From Janthinobacterium agaricidamnosum NBRC 102515 = DSM 9628 (lineage in GTDB: Bacteria > Pseudomonadota > Gammaproteobacteria > Burkholderiales > Burkholderiaceae_D): 64,000 nt of DNA. Position numbers and translations under genes: made by a program. Below the pieces are notes generated by a model. That model was not told where the DNA came from. It ran no database searches and was given only the letters and a program-made list of their open reading frames with translations. The DNA is taken from positions 1,198,025 to 1,262,024 of the forward strand of contig NZ_HG322949.1 in NCBI RefSeq assembly GCF_000723165.1, read 5' to 3'. Below are positions 6,204-46,476 of this stretch, in pieces. Positions within the stretch are counted from its first letter, which is position 1. Each line of letters opens with the position of its first letter.

Positions 6204-6239
6204 GGGCAGAGCGTGGATAAACACAAGGAGCGCCGCGCC

Positions 6240-6836
6240 ATGCCAGCCCCTGCCGGACCGCCGCTGCTGCCGATGCAATGGAGCAGCGCCTATCTGTCGT
6301 ATTGGTCGCCGATGCGGGAAGAAGACCAGCTGACCTCCGGCTATTGCTGGTTCGACTATGCCCGTAACATTTGCCGCATCGACGGCCTGTTCAATCCCTG
6401 GCCGGAAAAGGAAACAGGGCACCGGCTGTGGATGTCGGAAATCGGCGACGCCAGGCAGGGACAAAGCCGCAGACAGAAAGTGGCGTATGCCAGGGAAACG
6501 GCGGCCGCTGGCAGCACGCTGCGCGAGACGGCGCTGGAAGATGAACTGACGCCGTTTCATGCGCTGTTCCTGCCGCAGGCGATCCTGCTTGAGGGCAATG
6601 CGCTGCACGGCGGCCGCCACACCGTGCTGGGCCAGCCGGTCGACGCCTGGGTGGTGCAGCGGCCGGCCAGGGTGCCATCGGTGTTCTATCTGCAAGCCGG
6701 CGGCAACCGGTTGCTGCGCATGGTCACCGGCAACGACCCGCGGCATCTGTCGGTACGCGACTTCCCGAACTTCTGTGCCGGCGCCATCCCGGACAGCGTT
6801 TTCAGCCTGGAAAAAAGCGCAGTCCGGTCCGATTAA
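6240..6836 (+). CDS. vioE: VioE, prodeoxyviolacein-forming enzyme
   Basis: Cofactor-free enzyme of 198 aa that takes the VioB imine dimer and shifts an indole to give prodeoxyviolaceinic acid, the step that commits flux to violacein. Family signs seen: PPLLPMQWSSAYLSYWSPMR at the N-terminus and the aromatic-rich SGYCWFDYARNICRIDGLFN stretch. The frame is open from a GTG at 6213, but AAGGAG at 6225-6230 lies nine bases before the ATG at 6240, and the resulting length fits VioE (about 190 aa), so 6240 is chosen. Last of the five biosynthetic genes; the MFS gene follows after 20 bp. Confidence 0.96.
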   Translation: MPAPAGPPLLPMQWSSAYLSYWSPMREEDQLTSGYCWFDYARNICRIDGLFNPWPEKETGHRLWMSEIGDARQGQSRRQKVAYARETAAAGSTLRETALEDELTPFHALFLPQAILLEGNALHGGRHTVLGQPVDAWVVQRPARVPSVFYLQAGGNRLLRMVTGNDPRHLSVRDFPNFCAGAIPDSVFSLEKSAVRSD

Positions 6837-35799: not shown

Positions 35800-35817
35800 C
35801 GCCAGCCTGTAGCAGGA

Positions 35818-36690
35818 TCAGGGGATCTGGTATGAATCGCCGTTGACGCTCCAGCTCAACGGCGTTTTCAAGTCCAGGTTGCCGTTTTTCAGGAACAGGC
35901 GCTGCTGGGTGTCGATCCGGTCGACATTGCCGGCATGGTCGGATTCACCGGCCATCAGCGCGCGCCGCACATCCAGGAACGCATTCAGGTACGCCGTCTC
36001 ATTGCCGCCCTGCGACGGCGGCAATGCGCGGCGCAGCGCCTGGGCGCGCAAGCCGTAAAAACTATTGCTGAGCGTGTCGCCGCCCGGCCCGTGCATGACG
36101 ATCGCGTCGTAGTAGATGAATTGTCCCAGCGTCCCCAAACCGTCTTGCTTGGCCTGTGCCACGGACGGATTGAAATACATATTGTCGCGCAGCGTGTCCT
36201 GGCCTTTCTGGAACGCCGGATCCTTGGCGGCGACTTTCCAGTGGGCTACAAAATTCGGATCGAGGCCGGCGTGCGACGCGGTGCCGTTGACCTTGCGCAG
36301 CGCCGGCAGGTATGTGCTCAGCACATTGCCTGAGTTGGTCTTGGTGTAGGCTTCGACCAGTTCCAGCATGTCGCCGGTGCCGGACGTGAAACCGATGATG
36401 CCGCCGGTATAACCCCGGCCGTCGCTGATGTCTTCGATATAGGCATATTGCGCCTTCCAGTCCAGCGATGAATTTTCGGCGCTGGCGACCAGTTGCATCG
36501 CGATTTCCTTTTTGTCCACTGCGCTCAGGCCGTCCGCCGCGGCGGCCACTGACTGGCCTGGCAGCAATGATGAACTGGAATTTCCTGTCTGCCCGCTGCC
36601 ACCGCCGCAAGCGCTTAAGACCAGCGCCAGTGCCATGGTAATGAGCACGGTAGCGTGCCGCTGGCCAGAATGTGTCGTCTTGTAAGTCAT
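35818..36690 (-). CDS. GH46 chitosanase lipoprotein, copy 1
   Basis: 290-aa secreted chitosanase that splits beta-1,4 bonds in chitosan with inversion. Lipobox LSAC (Cys28), a Ser/Gly-rich spacer, then a full GH46 domain closely matching Streptomyces CsnN174: KKEIAMQLVASAENSSLDWK, EDISDGRGYTGGIIGFTSGT, and YYDAIVMHGPG. Catalytic Glu72 and Asp90 (Glu22 and Asp40 of CsnN174) and Arg92 are kept. Upstream, CCACAGGGTAT precedes the ATG as in copy 2, and the 25-bp dyad lies 205 bp upstream. Four copies stand in a row on this strand. Confidence 0.96.
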   Translation of the reverse strand: MTYKTTHSGQRHATVLITMALALVLSACGGGSGQTGNSSSSLLPGQSVAAAADGLSAVDKKEIAMQLVASAENSSLDWKAQYAYIEDISDGRGYTGGIIGFTSGTGDMLELVEAYTKTNSGNVLSTYLPALRKVNGTASHAGLDPNFVAHWKVAAKDPAFQKGQDTLRDNMYFNPSVAQAKQDGLGTLGQFIYYDAIVMHGPGGDTLSNSFYGLRAQALRRALPPSQGGNETAYLNAFLDVRRALMAGESDHAGNVDRIDTQQRLFLKNGNLDLKTPLSWSVNGDSYQIP

Positions 36691-36895
36691 GGTTGATACC
36701 CTGTGGTTTTTGTCCGGCGATGCTGGTCAGCCGACCTGGACTGAAGTCCAGCTCGTCGGTCTAGTTGAATTGCGGAAGATGAAAAACAGAGGGGAGGTTC
36801 ACATCGGATACAGGATATGGTCCTCTCCGAAACCTGGCGGCGGCGTGATTTCGCCTTCAATTCTAAAGGATCAAGACTGACTTTTTCTATAGCTA

Positions 36896-36920
36896 TTTTT
36901 GCAAATTGGATTGCGAAAAA
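36896..36920 (-). promoter_or_regulatory. 25-bp chitosanase upstream dyad, site 1
   Basis: TTTTTGCAA, six bases, TTGCGAAAAA: an imperfect inverted repeat, 205 bp upstream of chitosanase copy 1. Nearly the same sequence stands upstream of copies 3 and 4. Likely an operator or activator site. Confidence 0.6.
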
Positions 36921-36963
36921 CTGAGGCAGCCTCAGGTATACGGGAGATGCTTAGGGGATCTAC

Positions 36964-37127
36964 TTAGAGCCTGTCCCAGTAGATGAATATGCCCTGTTCT
37001 GGCGCTCCTCAGGAACGGGGACTGGGTTGATCGTCGTCGCGTGGCCCGCCACGCGTCCTCCTCACGCCTGGTCCGCGCTCCCGATGCGCGGCCAGAACAA
37101 GACGCTCACTACTGGGATAGGCTCTTA
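36964..37127. mobile_element. MITE-like element with 18-bp terminal inverted repeats
   Basis: Left end TTAGAGCCTGTCCCAGTA (36964-36981) and right end TACTGGGATAGGCTCTTA (37110-37127) match as inverted repeats with two mismatches; 164 bp in all, GC-rich core, no reading frame for a transposase. No clear target-site duplication seen. Confidence 0.45.
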
Positions 37128-37172
37128 GAGCCTGTTCCGGCAGACAATACATCGCCTGCCGGGACAGGTTCT
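37127..37172. repeat. Long hairpin next to the MITE-like element
   Basis: Arms AGAGCCTGTTCCGGCAG (37127-37143) and CTGCCGGGACAGGTTCT (37156-37172) pair with two mismatches around a 12-base loop. The left arm shares AGAGCCTGT with the end of the neighbouring element, so both may come from one repeat family. It lies 87 bp behind the copy-2 stop and lacks a T-run. Confidence 0.5.
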
Positions 37173-37258
37173 GACAGACCCGTCGCGCGGCTGCGGCCGG
37201 GCCGGGCCGGCGCCGGCCATCGCGGCCGCCGGCCTGTTTTTGTCAGCGCGGATGCGCG

Positions 37259-38164
37259 TCAGGGAATGTGGAAAGAGGTCTGGTTGACCTTCCAGTTCAA
37301 CGGCGTTTTCAAGTCCAGGTTCGCATTTTGCAGGAACAGGCGCTGCTCGGTATCGATCCGGTCGATATTGCCGGCGTGGTCGGATTCGCTGAGCATCAGT
37401 GCGCGCCGCACATCCAGGAACGCGTTCAGGTACGCTGTTTCATCGCCGCCCTTCGATGGCGGCAGCGCCTTTTGCAGCGCAACGGCGCGGATGCCGTTAA
37501 AACTGCTGCGCTGGGTATCCGAACCCGGGCCGTGCATGACGATCGCGTCGTAGTAGATGAATTGGCCCAGCGTGCGCAAACCGTCCTGCTTGGCCAGCGC
37601 CACGGCGGGATTGAAATATTCATTATCGCGCAGCGTGTCCTGGCTTTGCTTGAATACCGCATCTTGGGCGGCAATGCCCCAATCGGCGACGAAATTCGGA
37701 TCGAGGCCATCGTGCGAGGCGCTGCCATTGACCTTGCGCAGCGCCGGCAGGTATTTGCCCAGCACATTGACTGGCTGGATCGCGTTATAGGCGGTGACCA
37801 GTTCCAGCATGTCGCCGGTGCCGGAGGTGAAGCCGATGATGCCGGCGGTATAACCGCGACCGTCGCCGATATCCTCGATATAGCCGTATTGCGCCTTCCA
37901 GTTCAGCGATGAGTTTTCGGCGCTGGAGACCAGCTGCATCGCGATTTCCTTCTTGTCGGCCGCGCTCAAGCCGTCTGCAGAGGCCGGTGGCGGTGACGGC
38001 GGTGGCGGCGGGGTCACGACCGGCGTGTCCGGGCCGGCCGGTGCGCTGGGGTTGGCCGGCTGGCCGCCTGCGCCTCCTCCACCGCCGCAAGCGCTTAACG
38101 TCAATCCGATGACGAACAGCACGGTAGCGTTGCTCCGGCCAAAATATGTGGCGAAATAAGTCAT
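37259..38164 (-). CDS. GH46 chitosanase lipoprotein, copy 2
   Basis: 301-aa chitosanase lipoprotein; lipobox LSAC (Cys26) and the longest spacer of the four, Gly-rich then a proline stretch (about residues 48-60). GH46 core intact: KKEIAMQLVSSAENSSLNWK with Glu83, EDIGDGRGYTAGIIGFTSGT with Asp101 and Arg103. A frame runs further upstream to 38260, but the signal peptide MTYFATYFGRSNATVLFVIG and the CCACAGGGTAT leader before 38164 set the start. It lacks the 25-bp upstream dyad that the other three have, so it may be controlled apart or read from copy 3. Confidence 0.95.
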   Translation of the reverse strand: MTYFATYFGRSNATVLFVIGLTLSACGGGGGAGGQPANPSAPAGPDTPVVTPPPPPSPPPASADGLSAADKKEIAMQLVSSAENSSLNWKAQYGYIEDIGDGRGYTAGIIGFTSGTGDMLELVTAYNAIQPVNVLGKYLPALRKVNGSASHDGLDPNFVADWGIAAQDAVFKQSQDTLRDNEYFNPAVALAKQDGLRTLGQFIYYDAIVMHGPGSDTQRSSFNGIRAVALQKALPPSKGGDETAYLNAFLDVRRALMLSESDHAGNIDRIDTEQRLFLQNANLDLKTPLNWKVNQTSFHIP

Positions 38165-38466
38165 GATTAATACCCTGTGGTTTTTTGTGCGAGCATGCCG
38201 GCCACACAACCTTGTCAAGTGGCCAGCTGGTCGTTTGAGTTGACGAGAAAAAAATAACAAAAGATCACAGGCGTGCGGGTCCCGGTCTTCGCTGAAACTT
38301 TGCGGCGCAATGATGCCGCAGAGATTTTACGTGAAGGGAGCTTTTCTTGCCTGCCGTGCTTCGACAGAACAGCGGCCCCTCGATCGGGCCGGCTATCGGT
38401 GTCGCTTTTCGCGGCAGGTGCCTGGCCGGTGCCCGACTGCGCTCGCCGGCCGGGCGCCAGCGGACG
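38165..38466. other. 302-bp gap between chitosanase copies 2 and 3
   Basis: No gene. Near copy 2 it keeps the shared leader (ACAGGGTAT before the ATG, AAAAAACC block) and an A-rich patch (38247-38262); beyond that GC-rich sequence with small hairpins. The 25-bp dyad is absent. Confidence 0.6.
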
Positions 38467-39339
38467 TCAATTGATTTGATAGGGATCGTGGTTGACTTTC
38501 CAGCTCAGCGGCGTGTTCAAGTTCAGGTTGCCGCTTGTCAGGAACAGGCGCTGCTGGGTGTCGATCCGGTCGATATTGTGCTTGTGGTCGGACTCGGTCA
38601 GCATCAGCGCGCGGCGGGCATCCAGGAAGGCGGCCAGGTACGCCGTTTCATCGCCTTTCCGGGCCGGCGGCAGGGCCTTGAGCAGCGCCGCGGCGCGGAT
38701 GCCTTGCAGGCTGTGCGGTTTCTTGGCGCTACCCGGACCGTGCATGACGATGGCGTCGTAGTAAATGAATTGTCCCAGCGTGCCCAGGCCATCCTGCTTG
38801 GCCAGGATCACGGCGGGATCGAAATATTGCGCATTTAATACGTTCATCTGGGCTTGCTGGAACACGGGATCGGTGGCGGCGTTCTTCCAGTCCGGCACAA
38901 AATTCGGATCGAGGCCGGCGTGCGAGGCGCTGTGATTCACTTGCTGCAGCGCTGGTAAATATTGACTCAGGATATTGCCTGGCTCGGCAACGGTATACGC
39001 CTTGACCAGGTCGAGCATGTCGTCGGTGGCCGAGGTGAAACCGACCAGGCCGGCGGTATAACCGCGCTCATCGCCGATGTCTTCGATAATCGCATATTGC
39101 GACTTCCAGTCCAGCGTCGAGTTTTCGGAACTGGACACCAGTTCCATCGCGAGCTCCTTTTTATCCGGTGCGTTCAGGCCGTCCGGCGTATTGACCACGA
39201 CCACGCGGCCTTGCAGCGAGGTCGCGGCGGCGCCCGGTTCGGCATTGCCGCCGCCGCACGCGCCTAATGTCAATCCAACGCTGATGGCGAGCAGCACGGC
39301 CGCATGCTTGCGCCTCATATATGGTGCGATATAAGTCAT
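38467..39339 (-). CDS. GH46 chitosanase lipoprotein, copy 3
   Basis: 290-aa chitosanase lipoprotein, the most divergent copy. Lipobox LGAC (Cys28); spacer with TSLQGRVVVV, similar to that of copy 4. GH46 core: KKELAMELVSSSENSTLDWK with Glu72, EDIGDERGYTAGLVGFTSAT with Asp90 and Arg92, and YYDAIVMHGPGSAKK. The usual DGRG is DERG and several loop residues differ (FTSATDDMLDL, QQVNHSASH), but both catalytic acids remain, so it is probably active, maybe with another cleavage preference. The dyad is 198 bp upstream. Confidence 0.95.
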   Translation of the reverse strand: MTYIAPYMRRKHAAVLLAISVGLTLGACGGGNAEPGAAATSLQGRVVVVNTPDGLNAPDKKELAMELVSSSENSTLDWKSQYAIIEDIGDERGYTAGLVGFTSATDDMLDLVKAYTVAEPGNILSQYLPALQQVNHSASHAGLDPNFVPDWKNAATDPVFQQAQMNVLNAQYFDPAVILAKQDGLGTLGQFIYYDAIVMHGPGSAKKPHSLQGIRAAALLKALPPARKGDETAYLAAFLDARRALMLTESDHKHNIDRIDTQQRLFLTSGNLNLNTPLSWKVNHDPYQIN

Positions 39340-39639
39340 TTGTCATTCCCTATGTTTTTTATTCGACAATCCCGGTGCGCCAACGCGCGGCTATTCCGGT
39401 GCATTGTGTTGAAATTAACTCAGATGAGAAATAGTCAGGGAAGGCATCGCATGGGACATGCAATGCCTGCTGAAACCCGTGGCGATAGGATTTCAGTAGC
39501 GATTCTAAGGGGGGAGGGCGAGATTTTTCTACCGCTATTTTTGCAAAGCGGATGTCGAAAAAACAGATAGATAATTGGTAAGGGCCGGACTTCCTGGCCG
39601 GGCCTGCGCCCGCGATGGCGGACGCAGGCTTGCTGGCGC
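39340..39639. other. 300-bp gap between chitosanase copies 3 and 4
   Basis: No gene. Contains the copy-3 leader, a CAGATGAGAAATAGTCAGGG block (39420 on) matching the copy-4 leader (CAGATGAAAAATAATCAAGG at 40588), and the 25-bp dyad at 39538-39562. Confidence 0.65.
39538..39562 (-). promoter_or_regulatory. 25-bp chitosanase upstream dyad, site 2
   Basis: TTTTTGCAA, six bases, TGTCGAAAAA, 198 bp upstream of copy 3. The right arm is weaker than in the other two sites (TGTCG for TTGCG). Confidence 0.55.
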
Positions 39640-40506
39640 TTAGCGGATCTGGTATTGGTCGCCGTAGACCGACCAGTTCAATGGCGTGTTCAAGTCCAGG
39701 TTGCCATTGCGCAGGAACACCCGCTGCTCGGTGTCGATCCGGTCGACATTGCCGCCGTGATCGGCTTCGCTGAGCATCAGCGCGCGCCGCACATCCAGGA
39801 AGGCGTTCAGATAAGTCGTTTCGTTGCCGCCCTTGGATGGCGGCGTCGCGCGGCGCAGCGCCTCGGCGCGTATCCCTTGCAGGCTGCTGCGCTGGTTGTC
39901 GCTGCCCGGGCCGTGCATGACGATCGCATCGTAATAGATGAATTGTCCCAGCGTGCGCAAGCCGTCCTGCTTGGCCAGCGTAACCGACGGATTGAAATAT
40001 TGATTATCGCGCAGCGTGTCCTGGCTTTGCTGGAACACCACGTCTTTGGCGGCGGTTTTCCAGTCCGGCACAAAATTCGGATCGAGGCCGGCGTGCGAGG
40101 CGCTGCCATTGACCTTGCGCAGCGCCGGCAGATATTTGCTCAGCACATTGTTCGGCTTGGTCTTGTTATAGGCTTCGACCAGTGCCAGCATGTCGCTGGT
40201 GCCGGACGTGAAACCGATGATGCCGCCGGTGTAGCCGCGGCCGTCGCCGATGTCTTCGATGTAGCTGTATTGCGCCTTCCAGTTCAGCGACGAGTTTTCG
40301 GCGCTGGACACCAGTTGCATCGCGATGTCTTTCTTGGCCGGGGCGCTGAGACCGTCCGGCGCGGCGGCGACCACCGCCTGGCCCTGCAGCGACGTGGCGC
40401 CGGCGCCTTCCGATCCGGCATTGCCGCCGCAAGCGCCCAAGGCCAGGCTGACGGCCAGGAAGACGGCGCTGTTAGTCCTGTTAAAATGTGTCTTTGTAGA
40501 AGTCAT
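39640..40506 (-). CDS. GH46 chitosanase lipoprotein, copy 4
   Basis: 288-aa chitosanase lipoprotein, first of the array in transcription order. Lipobox LGAC (Cys26), short spacer with TSLQGQAVVAA, then the GH46 domain: KKDIAMQLVSSAENSSLNWK with Glu70, EDIGDGRGYTGGIIGFTSGT with Asp88 and Arg90, YYDAIVMHGPGSD. Leader CCATAGGGTAACAATT before the ATG matches the other copies. The dyad is 198 bp upstream. Each copy has its own leader, so they may be four transcription units of one regulon. Confidence 0.96.
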   Translation of the reverse strand: MTSTKTHFNRTNSAVFLAVSLALGACGGNAGSEGAGATSLQGQAVVAAAPDGLSAPAKKDIAMQLVSSAENSSLNWKAQYSYIEDIGDGRGYTGGIIGFTSGTSDMLALVEAYNKTKPNNVLSKYLPALRKVNGSASHAGLDPNFVPDWKTAAKDVVFQQSQDTLRDNQYFNPSVTLAKQDGLRTLGQFIYYDAIVMHGPGSDNQRSSLQGIRAEALRRATPPSKGGNETTYLNAFLDVRRALMLSEADHGGNVDRIDTEQRVFLRNGNLDLNTPLNWSVYGDQYQIR

Positions 40507-40704
40507 AATTGTTACCCTATGGTTTTTTTATCCGACGATCTTGGCTCCAACTTGGCACGGAGCCCAGTTCCTTGCTTTTGAAGTAATTCAGATGAAAAAT
40601 AATCAAGGATCATTGGCTAGGTAAGCGTGGCCCTCATGAAACAGTTGCTGTGGCAACGGTTCCACACCGATTTTAATAATTAATATAGATTATTTGTATA
40701 CTTA

Positions 40705-40729
40705 TTTTTGCAAATCCGATTGCGAAAAA
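40705..40729 (-). promoter_or_regulatory. 25-bp chitosanase upstream dyad, site 3
   Basis: TTTTTGCAA, six bases, TTGCGAAAAA, 198 bp upstream of copy 4. On the minus strand it is followed by a very AT-rich stretch (40670-40704), a likely promoter area. Confidence 0.6.
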
Positions 40730-40777
40730 TCTGCTGTGGCTAGCCAGCCCTGGTCGCCGTTCTGGCCACAGCTGCCA

Positions 40778-42040
40778 TTACAACTCCTGCAAGAATTCAC
40801 ACACCAATCCGGCAAACACCGATGGCTGTTCGATGACACTGATATGCGACGCCTGTGCGATCAGCCGCAACTGTGTATTGGGCAGCTGCGCGGCCATGAT
40901 CCCGGCCATCGCCGGCGGGGTGCCGCTGTCGAGTTCACCGGCGATCAGCAGCACCGGCACCGTTATCTGTTGCAGGCGGGCAGTGGTGGCGATGTCCGCC
41001 ACCGCGCCGCAACAGGCGATATAACCGTCGCTGTCGGTGGCCAGCAGGCGGCGCCGGAAGCGTTCCACCGTGGCCGGATCGGCCGCGCGATAAGCGTCAT
41101 GGAAATAACGCTGCATGACGCCATCGGCAATCGCCGCCATGCCGCCGGCGCACACGCTGGCCACGCGTTGCCGCCACATGTCGCGCGCCGCTTCCGGATA
41201 GCCGGAGGTGGTGTTGGCTGCCACCAGCGCGGACAGCAGCGCCGGATGGCGCAGCGCCAGTTCCTGGCCGACCATGCCGCCCATTGACAGGCCGATCCAC
41301 ACCACCGGGCCGGTGTCGAGTTCCAGCAGCAGGCGCGCCGCATCGTCGGCCAGTTCGGCCATCGTGTACGGTCCCGGCGGCGCAGCGGACCCGCCATGGC
41401 CGCGCTGGTCGTACACGATCACGCGGTGCTCCTCGGCCAGCACATGAGCCAGCCCATCCCACATGCTCAGGTCGCATCCCAGCGCGTGGCTCAGCACGAT
41501 GGTGTGGCGCGGCGCCTTGCCATTGCGCGGGGCGCGCACGCTGTAGTGCAGCGCGGGCTTGCTGCTGGTGTATCCGGCCCGGCCATAACCGGGATGGCTG
41601 GCAGCGGCCGGCGCCATTGCTTCCAGCGCATAGCCGATGTGCGGACCGACTTCGCGCAAGATGGCTTGCGCGTGGCCGAACGCGGTATTGGCGGCCGGCA
41701 CCCCGGCATACACCGCCGACTGCATCAGCACTTCCTTCAATTCGTCGGGCGACAGGCGATTGGCGGCCGGCGCCAGCAGCGCGGCGCGCACATGCAATTC
41801 GAACTCTTCCCAGCGGCCCAGCGCGATGGTGGTGGCGAGCACCATCGCGCGCCGGGTTTTTTGTTCCAGTCCGGGCCGGCCCCAGATATCGTGCCATGCA
41901 AAGCGGGTGATCAACTGCTGGAAATCGGCGTTGAAATTGTTGGCGTTCGATAGCGAACGCTCGACCCAGCTATCGCCGAGGATGGCGCGGCGCATCTGCA
42001 AGCCGCGCTCGAAATCATGATCCACATTGTCGAAGCTCAT
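40778..42040 (-). CDS. pcaCD: Fused 4-carboxymuconolactone decarboxylase / 3-oxoadipate enol-lactonase
   Basis: 420-aa cytoplasmic protein joining two successive steps of the protocatechuate branch. Residues about 1-130 are the decarboxylase (FERGLQMRRAILGDSWVERS, RFAWHDIWGRPGLEQKTRRA, EVLMQSAVYAGVPAAN); residues about 160-420 are an alpha/beta hydrolase with nucleophile GLSMGG, DQRGHGGS, acid in ELDSGTP and His in ASHISVIEQP. Both active-site sets look intact. Order is C then D, opposite to the D-then-C order I recall for actinobacterial PcaL. The start overlaps the pcaB stop by four bases. Confidence 0.93.
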   Translation of the reverse strand: MSFDNVDHDFERGLQMRRAILGDSWVERSLSNANNFNADFQQLITRFAWHDIWGRPGLEQKTRRAMVLATTIALGRWEEFELHVRAALLAPAANRLSPDELKEVLMQSAVYAGVPAANTAFGHAQAILREVGPHIGYALEAMAPAAASHPGYGRAGYTSSKPALHYSVRAPRNGKAPRHTIVLSHALGCDLSMWDGLAHVLAEEHRVIVYDQRGHGGSAAPPGPYTMAELADDAARLLLELDTGPVVWIGLSMGGMVGQELALRHPALLSALVAANTTSGYPEAARDMWRQRVASVCAGGMAAIADGVMQRYFHDAYRAADPATVERFRRRLLATDSDGYIACCGAVADIATTARLQQITVPVLLIAGELDSGTPPAMAGIMAAQLPNTQLRLIAQASHISVIEQPSVFAGLVCEFLQEL

Positions 42041-43425
42041 GCCGGTTTCTCCTGGTAAAAATTGACGGCGTCGAGCGCCGCGATATCGTGCCGCAGGCTG
42101 GCCAGTTGCTGTTGCGCCAGCCGGTGTCCGGGCGCGGTGGCGGCGACCGGATCGAACAGCGCAGCCAATCGGGCCGGCTCGATACGGCCCGGTCCGGGTT
42201 CATCTTGCAGCACGCTGGCCAGGTGGCGTCCGCTGGACGCGGCGGCGCCGGATAGGCGCTCCAGCAAGCTGTGCGCGGCAGGCTTGCCGATGGTGCCGGC
42301 CAGCTCGGCCGCGACCGCTTCGGCGAACACCAGTCCTTGCTGGGCGTCGATGTTACGCAGCATGCGGGCACTGTCGATGTGCAGGCCGCCGATGGCGTCG
42401 TTCAATGCGTGCAGCGCGCCGTGCGCGCCGAGGAAGAGCGCCGGCCATTGCGCCAGTTCGGCTTGCCAATTGCCGAGCCCGCGTTCGTGCTGCTGGCCCA
42501 TGCTGGCCAGCAGCGCGGCGGCATGGTGCGGCGTGCGGGTGGCGGCGGCCAGTGCGATCATCGCCGAGACCGGATTGCGCTTGTGCGGCATCGCCGACGA
42601 GCCGCCGCGGCCATCGCCGGCCGGTTCCGCCAGTTCGCCGATATCGCCTTGCGCCATCAGGCTCAGGTCGGTGGCCAGCTTGCCGAGACTGCCGGCCAGC
42701 AGCGCCACTTCCAGGCCGAGCCGGACCCAGTCGTCGCGCTGGGTGTGCCAGGCCGCGTCGGCCGCTTTCAGCCCCAGCGCGGCGGCGGCGCAGACCGCCA
42801 CGCGCGGGCCTGCGTCGCCCATCACCGCCAGCGTGCCGACTGCGCCGCCCAGCTGCAATTGCAGCGCGCGGGCGGCACACTCGCGCAGCCGGGTACGCGC
42901 GCGCACCAGCGGCGCCAGCCAGCCGGTCAGCTTGAACCCGAGACTGGTCACCTGGGCCGGCTGCATCAGCGTGCGCGCCAGCACCGGCGTCGCCAGATGG
43001 CGCTCGGCCAGGCTGGCCAGTTTGCCGCTCAATTGCGACAAATCCCGGTCCAGCAATTGCAGCGCATGGCGCGTGGCCAGCACCATCGCCGTGTCGATCA
43101 CATCCTGGCTGGTGGCGCCCCAGTGGACCATCTGCGCCGCCTTGCCGTCGTGCAGCGCCACGGTCCTGGTCAATTCCCTGACCAGCGGGATGGCCAGGCT
43201 GCCGGCGCGGCGGCCGGCCTGTATCAGCGCCGCCATGTCGTACAAGCGCACGTCGCAGGCGTCGGCGATGGCTTGCGCGGCGGCCTGCGGCAGCAGGCCC
43301 TGGCTGGCTTGCGCCTCGGTCAGCGCCTGCTCGAAACGCAGCATGCCTTGCACGATCGCCGCGTCGTCGAACACGGCGATCATCGCGTCGGTGCTGAGGA
43401 AATTATCGAAAATGGATACGCTCAT
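42037..43425 (-). CDS. pcaB: 3-carboxy-cis,cis-muconate cycloisomerase
   Basis: 462-aa enzyme of the fumarase/aspartase fold that makes gamma-carboxymuconolactone from the ring-opened acid. The superfamily signature GGSSAMPHKRNPVSA is present near residues 276-290; VHWGATSQDVIDTAMVLATR near residues 101-120 is typical of PcaB. Starts MSVSIFDNFLSTDAMIAVFD. Lies 18 bp behind pcaG and overlaps pcaCD by four bases. Confidence 0.96.
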   Translation of the reverse strand: MSVSIFDNFLSTDAMIAVFDDAAIVQGMLRFEQALTEAQASQGLLPQAAAQAIADACDVRLYDMAALIQAGRRAGSLAIPLVRELTRTVALHDGKAAQMVHWGATSQDVIDTAMVLATRHALQLLDRDLSQLSGKLASLAERHLATPVLARTLMQPAQVTSLGFKLTGWLAPLVRARTRLRECAARALQLQLGGAVGTLAVMGDAGPRVAVCAAAALGLKAADAAWHTQRDDWVRLGLEVALLAGSLGKLATDLSLMAQGDIGELAEPAGDGRGGSSAMPHKRNPVSAMIALAAATRTPHHAAALLASMGQQHERGLGNWQAELAQWPALFLGAHGALHALNDAIGGLHIDSARMLRNIDAQQGLVFAEAVAAELAGTIGKPAAHSLLERLSGAAASSGRHLASVLQDEPGPGRIEPARLAALFDPVAATAPGHRLAQQQLASLRHDIAALDAVNFYQEKPA

Positions 43426-43443
43426 CGCAGCTCCGGTCCAGGC

Positions 43444-43965
43444 TCAGGCGTAGTCGAAAAACACGGTTTCCTGCGGCCCTTGCAGGTGGATGTCCCAGCG
43501 GTAGCGGCCGGCGCCGGTGTGACGGGCCAGCAGCGTGGCGCGGCGTTCGGCCGGCACCTGGGCCAGTAGCGCCGATTGTTGCAGGCCGCTGTCGTCGTCG
43601 AGGAACACCGCGCTGAACTGGTGTACCAGCAAGCCGCGCGCGAACACGGTGAGCAGCGCCAGCGGCGCGCCCGGCGGCTGTTCGACCAGCGACAAACGCA
43701 GGCTGAAAGCGCCTTGTCCATCGCTCGGCACGCGCCGGAAACCGGGCAGCATCTGTTGTTCCTCCGCTGCCGCCGCGGCCGGCTGCCAGGCTTCGATTTG
43801 CGCATCGCTGACGGGCGCGCCGGCGCCGTCGTAGATCACGCCCTCGATGGTGACGGTGGCCGCGTCGGTGCGCAGGTGCCGGGAGGCGCTCAGGTCGGCC
43901 GCCCATTGCCAGGCGGCGTGCGGGTACGGGCCGACGGTTTGCGAAGTGGTAATGTCATTGCTCAT
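43444..43965 (-). CDS. pcaG: Protocatechuate 3,4-dioxygenase alpha subunit
   Basis: 173-aa non-catalytic partner of the ring-cleaving dioxygenase. Starts TTSQTVGPYPHAAW and has TIEGVIYDGAGAPVSDAQIE, GFRRVPSDGQGAFSLRL and FARGLLVHQFSAVFLDDD, in the order seen in PcaG. Somewhat shorter than the typical 190-200 aa. An open frame upstream to 44076 runs into pcaH and is discarded in favour of the ATG at 43965. Ten bases behind pcaH. Confidence 0.93.
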   Translation of the reverse strand: MSNDITTSQTVGPYPHAAWQWAADLSASRHLRTDAATVTIEGVIYDGAGAPVSDAQIEAWQPAAAAAEEQQMLPGFRRVPSDGQGAFSLRLSLVEQPPGAPLALLTVFARGLLVHQFSAVFLDDDSGLQQSALLAQVPAERRATLLARHTGAGRYRWDIHLQGPQETVFFDYA

Positions 43966-43975
43966 GGTGGGTTCC

Positions 43976-44668
43976 TCAAGATTCCAGCGGAGTGGCGTCC
44001 CGTCCGCGCAGGACGATGTCGAATGCATAGCCCAGCATCTGGTCGCCGACCGTGTGCTCCAGGCTGTAGCGCGCAATCAGCCGCTGGCGCGCCGCCAGGT
44101 CGCTGATGCTCTGGAAGATCGGGTCGTACGCGAACAGCGGGTCGCCGGGGAAATACATCTGCGTCACCAGGCGCTGCGCATACACATTGCCGAACAGTGA
44201 AAAATGGATGTGGGCCGGGCGCCAGGCCTTGTCGTGGTTGCCCCATGGGTAGGGGCCGGGCTTGATGGTGACGAAGCGGTAGCGGCCATCGTCGTCGGTC
44301 AGCATCTTGCCCCAGCCGTTGAAGTTCGGATCGAGCGGCGCATGGTGCTGGTCGCGCTGGTGGCGGTAGCGGCCGGCCGCGTTGCATTGCCACACTTCCA
44401 GCAGCGAGTTGCGCACCGGCCGGCCGTCCTGGTCCAGCACGCGGCCGGTGACGACGATTTTTTCGCCCAGCGGCGCGGCCTCGCCTTGCGCCGTCAAGTC
44501 CGTATCGTTCGGCAGCAGGATGCGCGGCGACGCGTCGATGTTGTGCCGGACCGCGTCTGGCCAGTTGAGCCGCAGTGCCGGCTGGGTCGGACCACGGCGC
44601 GCGGTCGATTGGTAGGGCGGATATATCAGCTCCGGATACAGGCCGGGGGCGATGGCGTCGAATTTCAC
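43976..44668 (-). CDS. pcaH: Protocatechuate 3,4-dioxygenase beta subunit
   Basis: 230-aa catalytic subunit that opens protocatechuate between the two hydroxyls with O2 on a non-haem Fe(III). The ligand set is visible: Tyr in AAGRYRHQ, Tyr in KPGPYPWGNH and the two His in RPAHIHFSLFG. Length fits PcaH (about 235 aa). First gene of pcaH-G-B-CD; the operon does not continue here into pcaIJF, so the last steps are coded elsewhere. Confidence 0.96.
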   Translation of the reverse strand: MKFDAIAPGLYPELIYPPYQSTARRGPTQPALRLNWPDAVRHNIDASPRILLPNDTDLTAQGEAAPLGEKIVVTGRVLDQDGRPVRNSLLEVWQCNAAGRYRHQRDQHHAPLDPNFNGWGKMLTDDDGRYRFVTIKPGPYPWGNHDKAWRPAHIHFSLFGNVYAQRLVTQMYFPGDPLFAYDPIFQSISDLAARQRLIARYSLEHTVGDQMLGYAFDIVLRGRDATPLES

Positions 44669-44757
44669 AGCGGGTTTCCTTCGGTGGGTGAATGGTCAGC
44701 TTGGCCACGATGGTAGGGAAGCCGCGGCAGGCTCACAAGATGCCCGCTGCGTGTTAT

Positions 44758-44772
44758 ATTCGCTGATCGCAC
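44758..44772. promoter_or_regulatory. Candidate PcaR/IclR binding box
   Basis: ATTCGCTGATCGCAC matches the Pseudomonas PcaR box GTTCGATAATCGCAC (as I recall it) at 12 of 15 positions. It lies in the gap between pcaH and the IclR gene, 38 bp before the latter. Confidence 0.55.
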
Positions 44773-44810
44773 ATAAAGGGCGAATATCGCCCAAATTCGG
44801 ATTTTTTTAC

Positions 44811-45584
44811 ATGGACAGCACCACACCGCCGCCTGCCAGGCGCGACCTGATCGCCGGACTGGAAAAGGGCTTGCAAGTAATCGAGGCCTTCGACCAGGAA
44901 CGGCGCCGCCTCAGCATCGCCGAAGTGGCCGAACGCACCGGCCTGACCCGCGCGGCGGCGCGGCGCTACCTGATCACGCTGACGCACCTGGGTTATATGC
45001 GGCATGAAGACAAGCTGTTTTCGCTGACGCCGATGGTGCTGCGGCTGGGCCAGTCCTACCTGCATTCGGCGCGCTTGCCGCGGGTGGTCCAGCCGCTGCT
45101 GTACCGGCTCGCGTACGGCCTGGGCGAGGCGGCGTCGGCCGGCGTGCTGGACCACGATCAACTGGTGTGCGTGGCGGCCGTCAGCGCCGGGCAACTGGTG
45201 TCGGCCACGCTGCAGCCGGGCACCCGGGTACCGGCCTGGTGCACCGCCAATGGACGCATGCTGCTGGCCAACCTGGGACCAGGGCAGGTCGAGGCTTTCC
45301 TGGCCCGCATCGAACCCGAGCAAATCACGGAACATACCATCGTCGACAAGCAGCGGCTGGCGCTGGAAATCGGCCGCGCGCGCAGCCAGGGTTATGCCTT
45401 GGTGGACCAGGAACTGGAGCTGGGATTGCGCACCATCGCCGTGCCGCTGAAGAACTTTCGCGGCGAAGTGATCGCCGCGCTCAACATCAGCGTGCATGCC
45501 GGCCGCATGCCGCTGGAGCAACTGGTCGAGCGCTGCTTGCCGGCGCTGATCAAGATCCAGGTCGAATTGAACGCTTTGCTGTGA
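44811..45584 (+). CDS. IclR-family regulator of the pca operon (PcaR/PcaU-like)
   Basis: 257-aa regulator: short lead, HTH (SIAEVAERTGLTRAAARRYL, about residues 41-60), then the IclR effector domain with PGTRVPAWCTANGRMLLANL and YALVDQELELGLRTIAVPLK. This is the PcaR/PcaU/PobR subgroup, which binds beta-ketoadipate or protocatechuate. Frame opens at 44652, but MDSTTPPPARRDLIAGLEKG at 44811 matches the family start. Divergent from pcaH, with a PcaR-like box between them. Confidence 0.9.
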   Translation: MDSTTPPPARRDLIAGLEKGLQVIEAFDQERRRLSIAEVAERTGLTRAAARRYLITLTHLGYMRHEDKLFSLTPMVLRLGQSYLHSARLPRVVQPLLYRLAYGLGEAASAGVLDHDQLVCVAAVSAGQLVSATLQPGTRVPAWCTANGRMLLANLGPGQVEAFLARIEPEQITEHTIVDKQRLALEIGRARSQGYALVDQELELGLRTIAVPLKNFRGEVIAALNISVHAGRMPLEQLVERCLPALIKIQVELNALL

Positions 45585-45591
45585 GTACGGT

Positions 45592-46476
45592 TCAGGGCGG
45601 CCCGAAACGCTCAAGCACAAAGTCGATAAAGGTCGTCAGTTTCGGCGTCGGCTGCCGGTCGCGCGAATACAGCAAATGCATCGGCCGCGGCGCCGGCACG
45701 TACTCTTGCAGCAGCGGGACCAGGCGTCCCGCCGCGATATCCTTTGCCAGCAATATTTCAGTTTGCAACACCACGCCAAAACCTTGCAGCGCGGCCATGC
45801 GCAAGGCTTGGCCATTGTTGCAGCGAAAGCGTCCGCCCCACAGCGCCGAATCGCCGGTTTCTCCTTTCAAGCGCCAGCGCACCAGCTTGTTCCAGTGTAT
45901 GTAATCGAGGCATTCATGCTGGACCAGGTCGTCCGGCGTGCGCGGTCTGCCATGCCGGGCCAGGTAGGCCGGCGACGCGCAAATGGCCATGCGGTAAGGA
46001 TGTAGCGGCCGCGCGACCAGGCTGGAGTCTTCCAGCTTGCCGATCCGTATCACCGCATCGTAACCTTCATCGACCAGGTCGACCAGGCGGTCGTTCAAGT
46101 TCAGGTCCAGGCTCACTTCCGGATGTGATCGCAGGTAATCGGTGACCGCCGGCGCCAGCAATTCGCTGCCGAAGGTTACCGGCACGCTGACTTTCAAACG
46201 GCCGCGCGGCACCGCGTGCATCGCTTCGGCGCCGCTTTCGGCGGCCGTAATGTGCGCCAGGATCAAACGGCATTGTTCACAATACTGGGCGCCGATCTCG
46301 GTCAGGCCCTGGCGCCGCGTGGTGCGCGTCAGCAACTGCGCACCGAGCCGGCTTTCCAGGTGCTTGATATGTTTGCCGATCATTACCGGTGACATCTCGA
46401 ACGCCTCGGCGGCGGCGGTAAAGTTGCCGGCGTCGACCACCGCGACGAAGATTTCCATGCTGCGCAGCTTGTCCAT
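45592..46476 (-). CDS. LysR-family regulator (divergent from SDR gene)
   Basis: 294-aa regulator of the CrgA-like LysR subgroup: MDKLRSMEIFVAVVDAGNFT, HTH with AAAEAFEMSPVMIGKHIKHL, TRTTRRQGLTEIG, then RGRLKVSVPVTFGSELLAPA. Such regulators often control the divergent gene, here a short-chain dehydrogenase-like gene 111 bp away. Seven bases after the IclR gene and convergent with it. Ligand unknown. Confidence 0.9.
   Translation of the reverse strand: MDKLRSMEIFVAVVDAGNFTAAAEAFEMSPVMIGKHIKHLESRLGAQLLTRTTRRQGLTEIGAQYCEQCRLILAHITAAESGAEAMHAVPRGRLKVSVPVTFGSELLAPAVTDYLRSHPEVSLDLNLNDRLVDLVDEGYDAVIRIGKLEDSSLVARPLHPYRMAICASPAYLARHGRPRTPDDLVQHECLDYIHWNKLVRWRLKGETGDSALWGGRFRCNNGQALRMAALQGFGVVLQTEILLAKDIAAGRLVPLLQEYVPAPRPMHLLYSRDRQPTPKLTTFIDFVLERFGPP

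What the first reader, a model, noticed from the sequence alone, without database searches (positions are those of the whole stretch)
35818..40506. Four tandem GH46 chitosanase lipoproteins
Four complete GH46 genes stand head to tail, all with lipobox cysteines and all with the catalytic Glu, Asp and Arg (CsnN174 Glu22, Asp40, Arg42). Most bacteria carry one. Their spacers differ (proline stretch in copy 2, Ser-rich in copy 1) and copy 3 has diverged in the substrate loops, which suggests a graded set of surface-bound enzymes against chitosan-rich fungal walls. In a violacein maker this fits a fungus-attacking life style.
Basis: partly seen in the sequence, partly recalled or inferred. Interest (0 to 1): 0.7.

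Follow-up and report, generated by a model that had tools for sequence, protein, structure and literature searches.

The report
Four tandem chitosanases in mushroom pathogen
A bacterium that rots cultivated mushrooms carries four side-by-side copies of a gene for an enzyme that cuts chitosan, a fungal wall sugar; the enzyme is of a known kind, but the size of the array, its private control site and one strongly altered copy are unusual.

Summary
Confirmed: four intact GH46 chitosanase lipoprotein genes lie head to tail on the minus strand (35818-40506); all keep Glu22, Asp40, Arg42, Thr45. The genome is almost certainly Janthinobacterium agaricidamnosum DSM 9628, a button-mushroom soft-rot pathogen (contig length equals the published size). 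A published secretome (PMC10470514) lists two GH46 proteins released on mushroom medium with help of type II secretion; accession order and masses assign them to copies 4 and 1 (inference). So the fungal-attack reading is largely right and partly in print; 'surface-bound' and 'graded set' remain unproven. Found here: GH46 in 3 of 40 genus genomes, four in a row only in this one; array plus pca genes absent between the same two flanking genes in 9 of 9 relatives inspected; a 25-bp palindrome before copies 1, 3 and 4, not 2, and nowhere else in the genome, exact in copies 1 and 4, the two reported secreted; dN/dS 0.29-0.40 within the array against 0.13-0.22 to single-copy relatives; copy 3 altered at 15 conserved positions, including Tyr34Ile (0 of 211 relatives). 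Two distant GH46 genes sit elsewhere beside a TonB receptor. Known enzyme family, unusual expansion.

The parts
35818..36690 (-). copy 1: GH46 chitosanase lipoprotein, 290 aa (database start gives 272 aa)
   Evidence: PF01374 306.4 bits; E22/D40/R42/T45 kept; by number and mass probably CDG81764 of the published secretome
37259..38164 (-). copy 2: GH46 chitosanase lipoprotein with Pro-rich spacer, 301 aa from ATG 38164
   Evidence: PF01374 304.2 bits; E22/D40/R42/T45 kept; leader shared with the other copies; no palindrome upstream
38467..39339 (-). copy 3: divergent GH46 chitosanase lipoprotein, 290 aa
39640..40506 (-). copy 4: GH46 chitosanase lipoprotein, 288 aa
   Evidence: PF01374 314.5 bits; by number and mass probably CDG81767 of the published secretome
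36896..36920 (-). 25-bp imperfect palindrome before copy 1
   Evidence: 0 mismatches to TTTTTCGCAATCNNATTTGCAAAAA
39538..39562 (-). 25-bp palindrome before copy 3, 3 mismatches
40705..40729 (-). 25-bp palindrome before copy 4
   Evidence: 0 mismatches; 23 of 25 bases identical to the copy 1 site, against 11 of 40 upstream and 24 of 60 downstream
36860..36889 (-). promoter-like TAGAAA-18-TAGAAT before copy 1, just downstream of the palindrome; the same pair at 39502-39531 before copy 3
   Evidence: consensus scan only (5 found, 1.9 expected)
36962..37131 (.). MITE-like repeat with inverted ends between copies 1 and 2 (ends approximate)
   Evidence: at least 41 places in the genome at 88-100% identity, window copy included; only 40 of 229 candidates were scored; ends seen
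35800..45591 (.). stretch (GH46 array, pca-like genes, IclR regulator) that is absent between the same flanking genes in relatives
   Evidence: 0 of 9 relatives inspected have it there; outer-membrane efflux gene and LysR gene adjacent in 7 of 9, LysR not matched in 2

Best explanation
The array encodes four active-site-intact endo-chitosanases of GH46 cluster A, made as lipoproteins, which J. agaricidamnosum uses on the chitosan of fungal walls. Exported by the Sec/lipoprotein route (inferred from the lipobox), they reach the outside and, for copies 4 and 1, appear in the medium in a way that needs the type II secretion system (published; my assignment of accessions is inferred). They cut deacetylated stretches of chitin, together with the secreted GH18 and GH19 chitinases, and so loosen the wall; oligomers may be taken up by the TonB receptor of a second locus that also carries two distant GH46 genes (inferred). 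The copies arose by tandem duplication of one ancestral gene, each unit carrying its own promoter region; copies 1, 3 and 4 share a private operator-like palindrome, copy 2 lost or never had it. After duplication the proteins changed faster than single-copy relatives, copy 3 most, so that copy 3 is likely to differ in +1/-2 subsite use. Shown here: gene structure, residues, distribution, palindrome, rates. Published: secretion and T2SS dependence of two GH46 proteins. Inferred: operator function, altered specificity, lipid anchoring, uptake.
For: Family and residues; fold of copy 3. Identity of the genome: contig length 5,949,001 for copy 4's protein equals the published genome size, which also reports a violacein locus; VioE is in the window. 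Secretome on mushroom medium: CDG81767 30.9 kDa log2 -4.356 and CDG81764 28.7 kDa log2 -2.490, delta-gspE over wild type (PMC10470514 Table 1); computed masses copy 4 31.0 kDa, copy 1 in its database form 28.8 kDa; accession interpolation from two GH18 anchors puts the four numbers at 1,237,100-1,240,383, the array lies at 1,233,842-1,238,530. Co-occurrence: GH46 of both types, and a TonB receptor at 90-91% identity, in the same 3 of 40 genus genomes. Rates: within-array dS 0.42-0.73, dN/dS 0.29-0.40; to S3T4/K2E3 dS 0.75-1.00, dN/dS 0.13-0.22; five neighbouring genes own-K2E3 dS 0.61-1.19. Palindrome.
Against: The three-anchor fit misses the array by about 16 kb and I read no sequence under the CDG accessions. 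Copies 2 and 3 are not in Table 1; its supplements were not readable, so absence there says little. No activity data for any copy. The protein tree does not show the array as one clade (p-AU 0.118 for holding it together, log-likelihood 8.1 lower), and an earlier tree put copy 3 with a Luteibacter protein (95/97), which vanished when a closer relative was added. The ROK-regulated second locus has no such palindrome (best score 9.3 against 38-42), nor do the GH46 genes of S3T4/K2E3, so nothing ties the site to a known regulator. Lipoprotein processing was not tested.
Confidence: 0.72

Rival explanations
1. Gene dosage only: four near-equivalent copies kept for yield of one activity; the differences are neutral.
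For: All catalytic residues and the fold are kept; copies 1, 2 and 4 have only 3-5 changes at conserved positions; dN/dS is below 1 for every pair.
Against: Copy 3 has 15 such changes, with Tyr34Ile in none of 211 relatives; dN/dS within the array is two to three times that to single-copy relatives; upstream regions differ, copy 2 lacks the palindrome.
Confidence: 0.3
2. Foraging on free chitosan: the enzymes feed a chitosan uptake and catabolism locus rather than attack living fungi.
For: The second GH46 locus has ROK regulator, PfkB kinase, MFS transporter, TonB receptor and two GH46 lipoproteins, and co-occurs with the GH46-A type in 3 of 40 genomes; the review PMC4663542 names assimilation as one role (section read).
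Against: The organism is a mushroom pathogen and two GH46 proteins are in its mushroom secretome. The two roles do not exclude each other.
Confidence: 0.35
3. Protection of the cell against chitosan, which harms bacteria.
For: Shown for a Streptomyces csnA deletion and for periplasmic chitosanase in E. coli, as told in PMC4663542; lipoproteins would sit at the envelope.
Against: Two copies are in the medium and need type II secretion; nothing here tests it.
Confidence: 0.15
4. Copy 3 is a decaying copy on its way to loss.
For: Largest dN (0.19-0.24), 15 changes at conserved positions, imperfect palindrome, absent from the published Table 1.
Against: Open frame of 290 aa, all catalytic residues kept, dN/dS 0.20-0.40, confident GH46 fold; five of its changes are shared with a Luteibacter protein, 5 of 5 in P0125 and 4 of 5 in P0123, which points to tolerated alternatives rather than damage.
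Confidence: 0.2

Closest known systems
Cho4239-1, GH46 chitosanase of Janthinobacterium sp. 4239 (PMC2835661)
   Same: Same genus, same family, about 291 aa, lipoprotein-type signal; activity mostly in medium; cold-active endo-enzyme (abstract, results part 1 and discussion read).
   Different: Reported to lack Asp40 and Arg42, which all four copies have and none of 217 proteins here lacks; neighbour gene different (aspartate decarboxylase); one gene cloned, authors could not tell whether a second exists. I did not have its sequence.
CsnN174 of Streptomyces sp. N174 (1chk)
   Same: 63-68% identity over the catalytic domain, all key catalytic residues.
   Different: Secreted by a Gram-positive, no lipobox; single gene studied.
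Three tandem GH46 genes in Lentzea sp. NBRC 105346 (L069) and three dispersed ones in Kitasatospora setae (PMC5635096, passages)
   Same: Several GH46 genes in one genome; in Lentzea side by side.
   Different: Three, not four; actinobacteria; separate branch of the tree. K. setae genes flank a csnR transport cluster.
CsnR-operator system of actinobacteria (PMC3048496, passages)
   Same: A palindrome before chitosanase genes, bound there by a ROK-family repressor.
   Different: The palindrome here lies upstream of the -35-like hexamer rather than over the start site, and no regulator is linked to it; a ROK gene exists only at the second locus.
ElpS of Caulobacter (PMC2996285, abstract only)
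   Same: Surface lipoprotein whose release into the medium needs the T2SS.
   Different: Unrelated protein; offered only as a model for how a lipoprotein becomes T2SS-dependent in the supernatant.

Membership tests
GH46 chitosanase (PF01374) | Full-length match above the curated cut-off | tested here: met
   4 of 4, 281.6-314.5 bits, cut-off 27
GH46 chitosanase (PF01374) | General acid Glu, base Asp, assisting Arg, water-orienting Thr | tested here: met
   E22, D40, R42, T45 in 4 of 4
GH46 chitosanase (PF01374) | Two-lobed lysozyme-like fold of GH46 | tested here: met
GH46 chitosanase (PF01374) | Endo-hydrolysis of chitosan | not testable with these tools
   needs purified enzymes
GH46 cluster A | Grouping with CsnN174-type sequences | tested here: inconclusive
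   63-68% identity to CsnN174 and 25-32% to the own genome's distant GH46 pair; all rows in the trees were cluster-A-like, so other clusters were not set against them
Bacterial lipoprotein | Lipobox with Cys after a hydrophobic stretch | tested here: met
   LSAC or LGAC in 4 of 4, by eye, no signal predictor run
Bacterial lipoprotein | Acylation and outer-membrane or surface location | not testable with these tools
   published data show two GH46 proteins in supernatant, not their acylation
Type II secretion dependent exoprotein | Less in the medium without the T2SS ATPase | not tested
   published for CDG81767 and CDG81764 (PMC10470514); the link to copies 4 and 1 is inferred from number and mass

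The most novel reading that the evidence does not exclude
The array is a divided enzyme set: copies 1 and 4, under an operator-like palindrome that occurs nowhere else in this genome or in 39 others of the genus, are the mushroom-induced, type-II-released workhorses, while copy 3, with a remodelled +1 subsite (Tyr34Ile, a contact kept in 211 of 211 relatives) and altered 41-56 loop, has taken on a chitosan type (for instance more acetylated or shorter chains) that no studied GH46 enzyme prefers, and copy 2 is uncoupled from the palindrome.
Probability: 0.25. Interest if true: 0.6.

Novelty: new member of a known kind. Interest (0 to 1): 0.42.

Why it matters
PMC5635096 notes that nearly all chitosanase studies deal with one enzyme per strain and that it is largely unknown how one species deals with the variety of natural chitosans (passage). 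Four sister enzymes with one strongly altered member, in a fungus pathogen whose secretome is already measured, make that question directly testable. It also bears on the open point in PMC2835661 whether Janthinobacterium has one or two chitosanase genes: in the three GH46-bearing genus genomes seen here both a cluster-A-like and a distant GH46 type are present.

Tried and rejected
Recent horizontal gain from a named donor: rejected as unproven; the nearest named relatives outside the genus are Actinomycetota and Burkholderiales at 57-71% (best segment), and GC content of the copies (0.60-0.617) equals that of the window (0.613). Mobile element as carrier of the island: no direct or inverted repeat of 10 bases or more shared by 300-base stretches at the two edges. 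Palindrome as a wider regulon: no further site in the genome at up to 3 mismatches and none in 39 other genus genomes. Gene conversion as main shaper: identity along the pairs shows no long identical tract (longest 48 bases). Copy 3 as a gene taken from Luteibacter: the grouping did not hold; five shared residues stay unexplained. Parallel recent doubling of the distant GH46 pair: K2E3 has one such gene where the own genome has two, but D2-K2E3 dS 0.63 is below D1-D2 0.69, so the doubling may be older than the split, with a loss in K2E3. A print search for the array itself: searches list no paper on it; only PMC10470514 and PMC8692619 hold both J. agaricidamnosum and chitosanase (the second seen as a listing only). 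The alignment around residue 201 differs, so no claim is made on it.
Full report

WHOSE GENOME. The window lies in a single 5,948,970-base contig. The protein database gives 5,949,001 bases as the contig of copies 1-4, which is the published size of J. agaricidamnosum DSM 9628, reported with a violacein locus (PMC4400430, whole text); VioE is at 6213-6836 (PF18234). No record title was read, so this is a strong inference. The species causes soft rot of Agaricus bisporus.

WHAT IS ALREADY PUBLISHED. PMC10470514 (passages and section 7 part 1 read) grew the strain and a T2SS ATPase mutant on mushroom medium. Table 1 has two GH46 proteins: CDG81767, 30.9 kDa, log2 ratio -4.356, and CDG81764, 28.7 kDa, -2.490. 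Computed masses are 31.0 kDa for copy 4 and 28.8 kDa for copy 1 with the start used in the database (272 aa); copy 2 gives 30.3 (database start) or 31.9, copy 3 31.3. With two GH18 genes as anchors the four consecutive numbers fall at 1,237,100-1,240,383, against 1,233,842-1,238,530 for the array; a fit on three anchors falls about 16 kb short. Hence 81764-81767 are most likely copies 1-4 in order. Copies 2 and 3 are not in that table; its supplements could not be read.

DISTRIBUTION. GH46 is in 3 of 40 genus genomes (3 of 37 of high quality): the own genome (four plus two), and two others, whose contigs equal those of Janthinobacterium sp. S3T4 and K2E3, each with one cluster-A-like and one distant gene. 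Family sample: 15 of 392 with a match, 13 over the cut-off. Class sample: 3 of 369, 2 over the cut-off. Of 80 GH46 loci fetched (best 80 of 288 confirmed), 2 hold more than one gene within the locus: three in Lentzea L069 and two in Lentzea L090. In 48 whole genomes reached through 50 of these loci: 34 with one, 12 with two, 2 with three.

SURROUNDINGS. Upstream of the array (on the plus strand) stand an MFS and an outer-membrane efflux gene; the latter is in 38 of 40 genus genomes and 37 of 37 good ones. In 7 of 9 relatives inspected it is followed at once by the LysR gene that in the window comes only at 45592; in the other 2 the LysR gene gave no match; in none of the 9 do GH46 or pca-like genes lie between. 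The pca-like hydrolase next to copy 4 is in 5 of 40 genomes including this one, and in the three fetched cases at another place. So 35800-45591 is an insertion, or a retained stretch lost elsewhere; no boundary repeats were seen. The GH46 genes of S3T4 and K2E3 share a 14-kb locus with each other but none of the window's neighbours. A MITE-like element of about 168 bases, with at least 41 places in the genome, sits between copies 1 and 2.

SECOND LOCUS. At 1.967-1.976 Mb the genome has a ROK regulator, a PfkB kinase, an MFS transporter, a TonB-dependent receptor and two distant GH46 lipoprotein genes. The receptor has 90-91% identical counterparts only in the same two GH46-bearing relatives; all others are at 56% or less. 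This looks like a chitosan oligomer uptake locus (inference from gene types). K2E3 has one GH46 gene there, not two.

PROMOTERS. Just before the ATG all copies and the S3T4/K2E3 genes share a leader around AGGG. Farther up, copies 1, 3 and 4 have TTTTTCGCAATCNNATTTGCAAAAA, with 0, 3 and 0 mismatches; no other site with up to 3 mismatches exists in this genome or in 39 other genus genomes; reversed-pattern controls gave none. Between copies 1 and 4 the 25 bases agree at 23, the 40 upstream at 11, the 60 downstream at 24; copies 1-3: 21, 10, 35; copies 3-4: 21, 7, 13. The next best window score is 9.4 against 38-42, so copy 2 has no such site. A promoter-like TAGAAA-18-TAGAAT lies just downstream in copies 1 and 3, but the scan's excess over chance is small (5 against 1.9) and copy 4 has no such hit. 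The two copies with exact sites are the two that I assign to the secretome. With four genes this is suggestive only.

EVOLUTION. Nei-Gojobori distances over the catalytic domain: within the array dS 0.42-0.73 and dN/dS 0.29-0.40; array to S3T4 or K2E3 dS 0.75-1.00 and dN/dS 0.13-0.22; S3T4 to K2E3 dN/dS 0.04; five nearby genes between own genome and K2E3 dS 0.61-1.19. The simplest reading is duplication after the lineages parted, followed by faster protein change. The protein trees are less clear: the genus sequences group together (100/100 with a Luteibacter protein inside; 85/84 without), the array is not recovered as one clade, and holding it together is not rejected (p-AU 0.118). Copy 3 has the longest branch (0.48 against 0.15, 0.16 and 0.02). 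Against 211 relatives (the two top-120 lists less the own proteins) it differs at 15 positions conserved in 95% or more, the others at 3-5; Tyr34 is Tyr in 211 of 211 and Ile in copy 3. Tyr34 (Tyr37 in OU01) makes a +1 subsite hydrogen bond and is Tyr in all the enzymes of the table in PMC5635096 (passage).

MECHANISM. Best reading: secreted or surface-anchored endo-chitosanases that work with chitinases on the fungal wall. How a lipobox protein becomes T2SS-dependent in the medium is open; ElpS of Caulobacter, a surface lipoprotein released with help of the T2SS (abstract), is a model. Foraging and self-protection are rivals that do not exclude it.

VERDICT. A real, well-described observation with a mostly right reading. 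The enzymes are ordinary GH46 members and two are probably already in a published secretome table; the four-gene array, its private palindrome and the altered copy 3 are the new points.

Noticed in passing
own genome G000:C1 about 1967000-1976000 (L102:1356-9993): Locus with ROK regulator, PfkB kinase, MFS transporter, TonB receptor and two distant tandem GH46 lipoproteins; likely chitosan oligomer uptake.
   Followed up: partly
window 36962-37131: MITE-like element of about 168 bases with inverted ends, at least 41 places in the genome.
   Followed up: partly
window 35800-45591: Nearly 10 kb with the array, pca-like genes and an IclR regulator, missing between the same flanking genes in 9 of 9 relatives inspected; no boundary repeats.
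   Followed up: partly
window 40778-42040: Fusion of a carboxymuconolactone decarboxylase domain with an alpha/beta hydrolase, only in 5 of 40 genus genomes.
   Followed up: no
P0123, P0125 (Luteibacter-type proteins) and copy 3: They share four or five substitutions (48L, 49V, 54A, 118L, 119N) that are rare elsewhere, without grouping in the tree; convergence or old exchange.
   Followed up: partly
literature: Cho4239-1 (PMC2835661): Reported to lack Asp40 and Arg42 with activity intact; 0 of 217 proteins seen here lack them, so a local reading-frame error in that sequence is worth checking.
   Followed up: no
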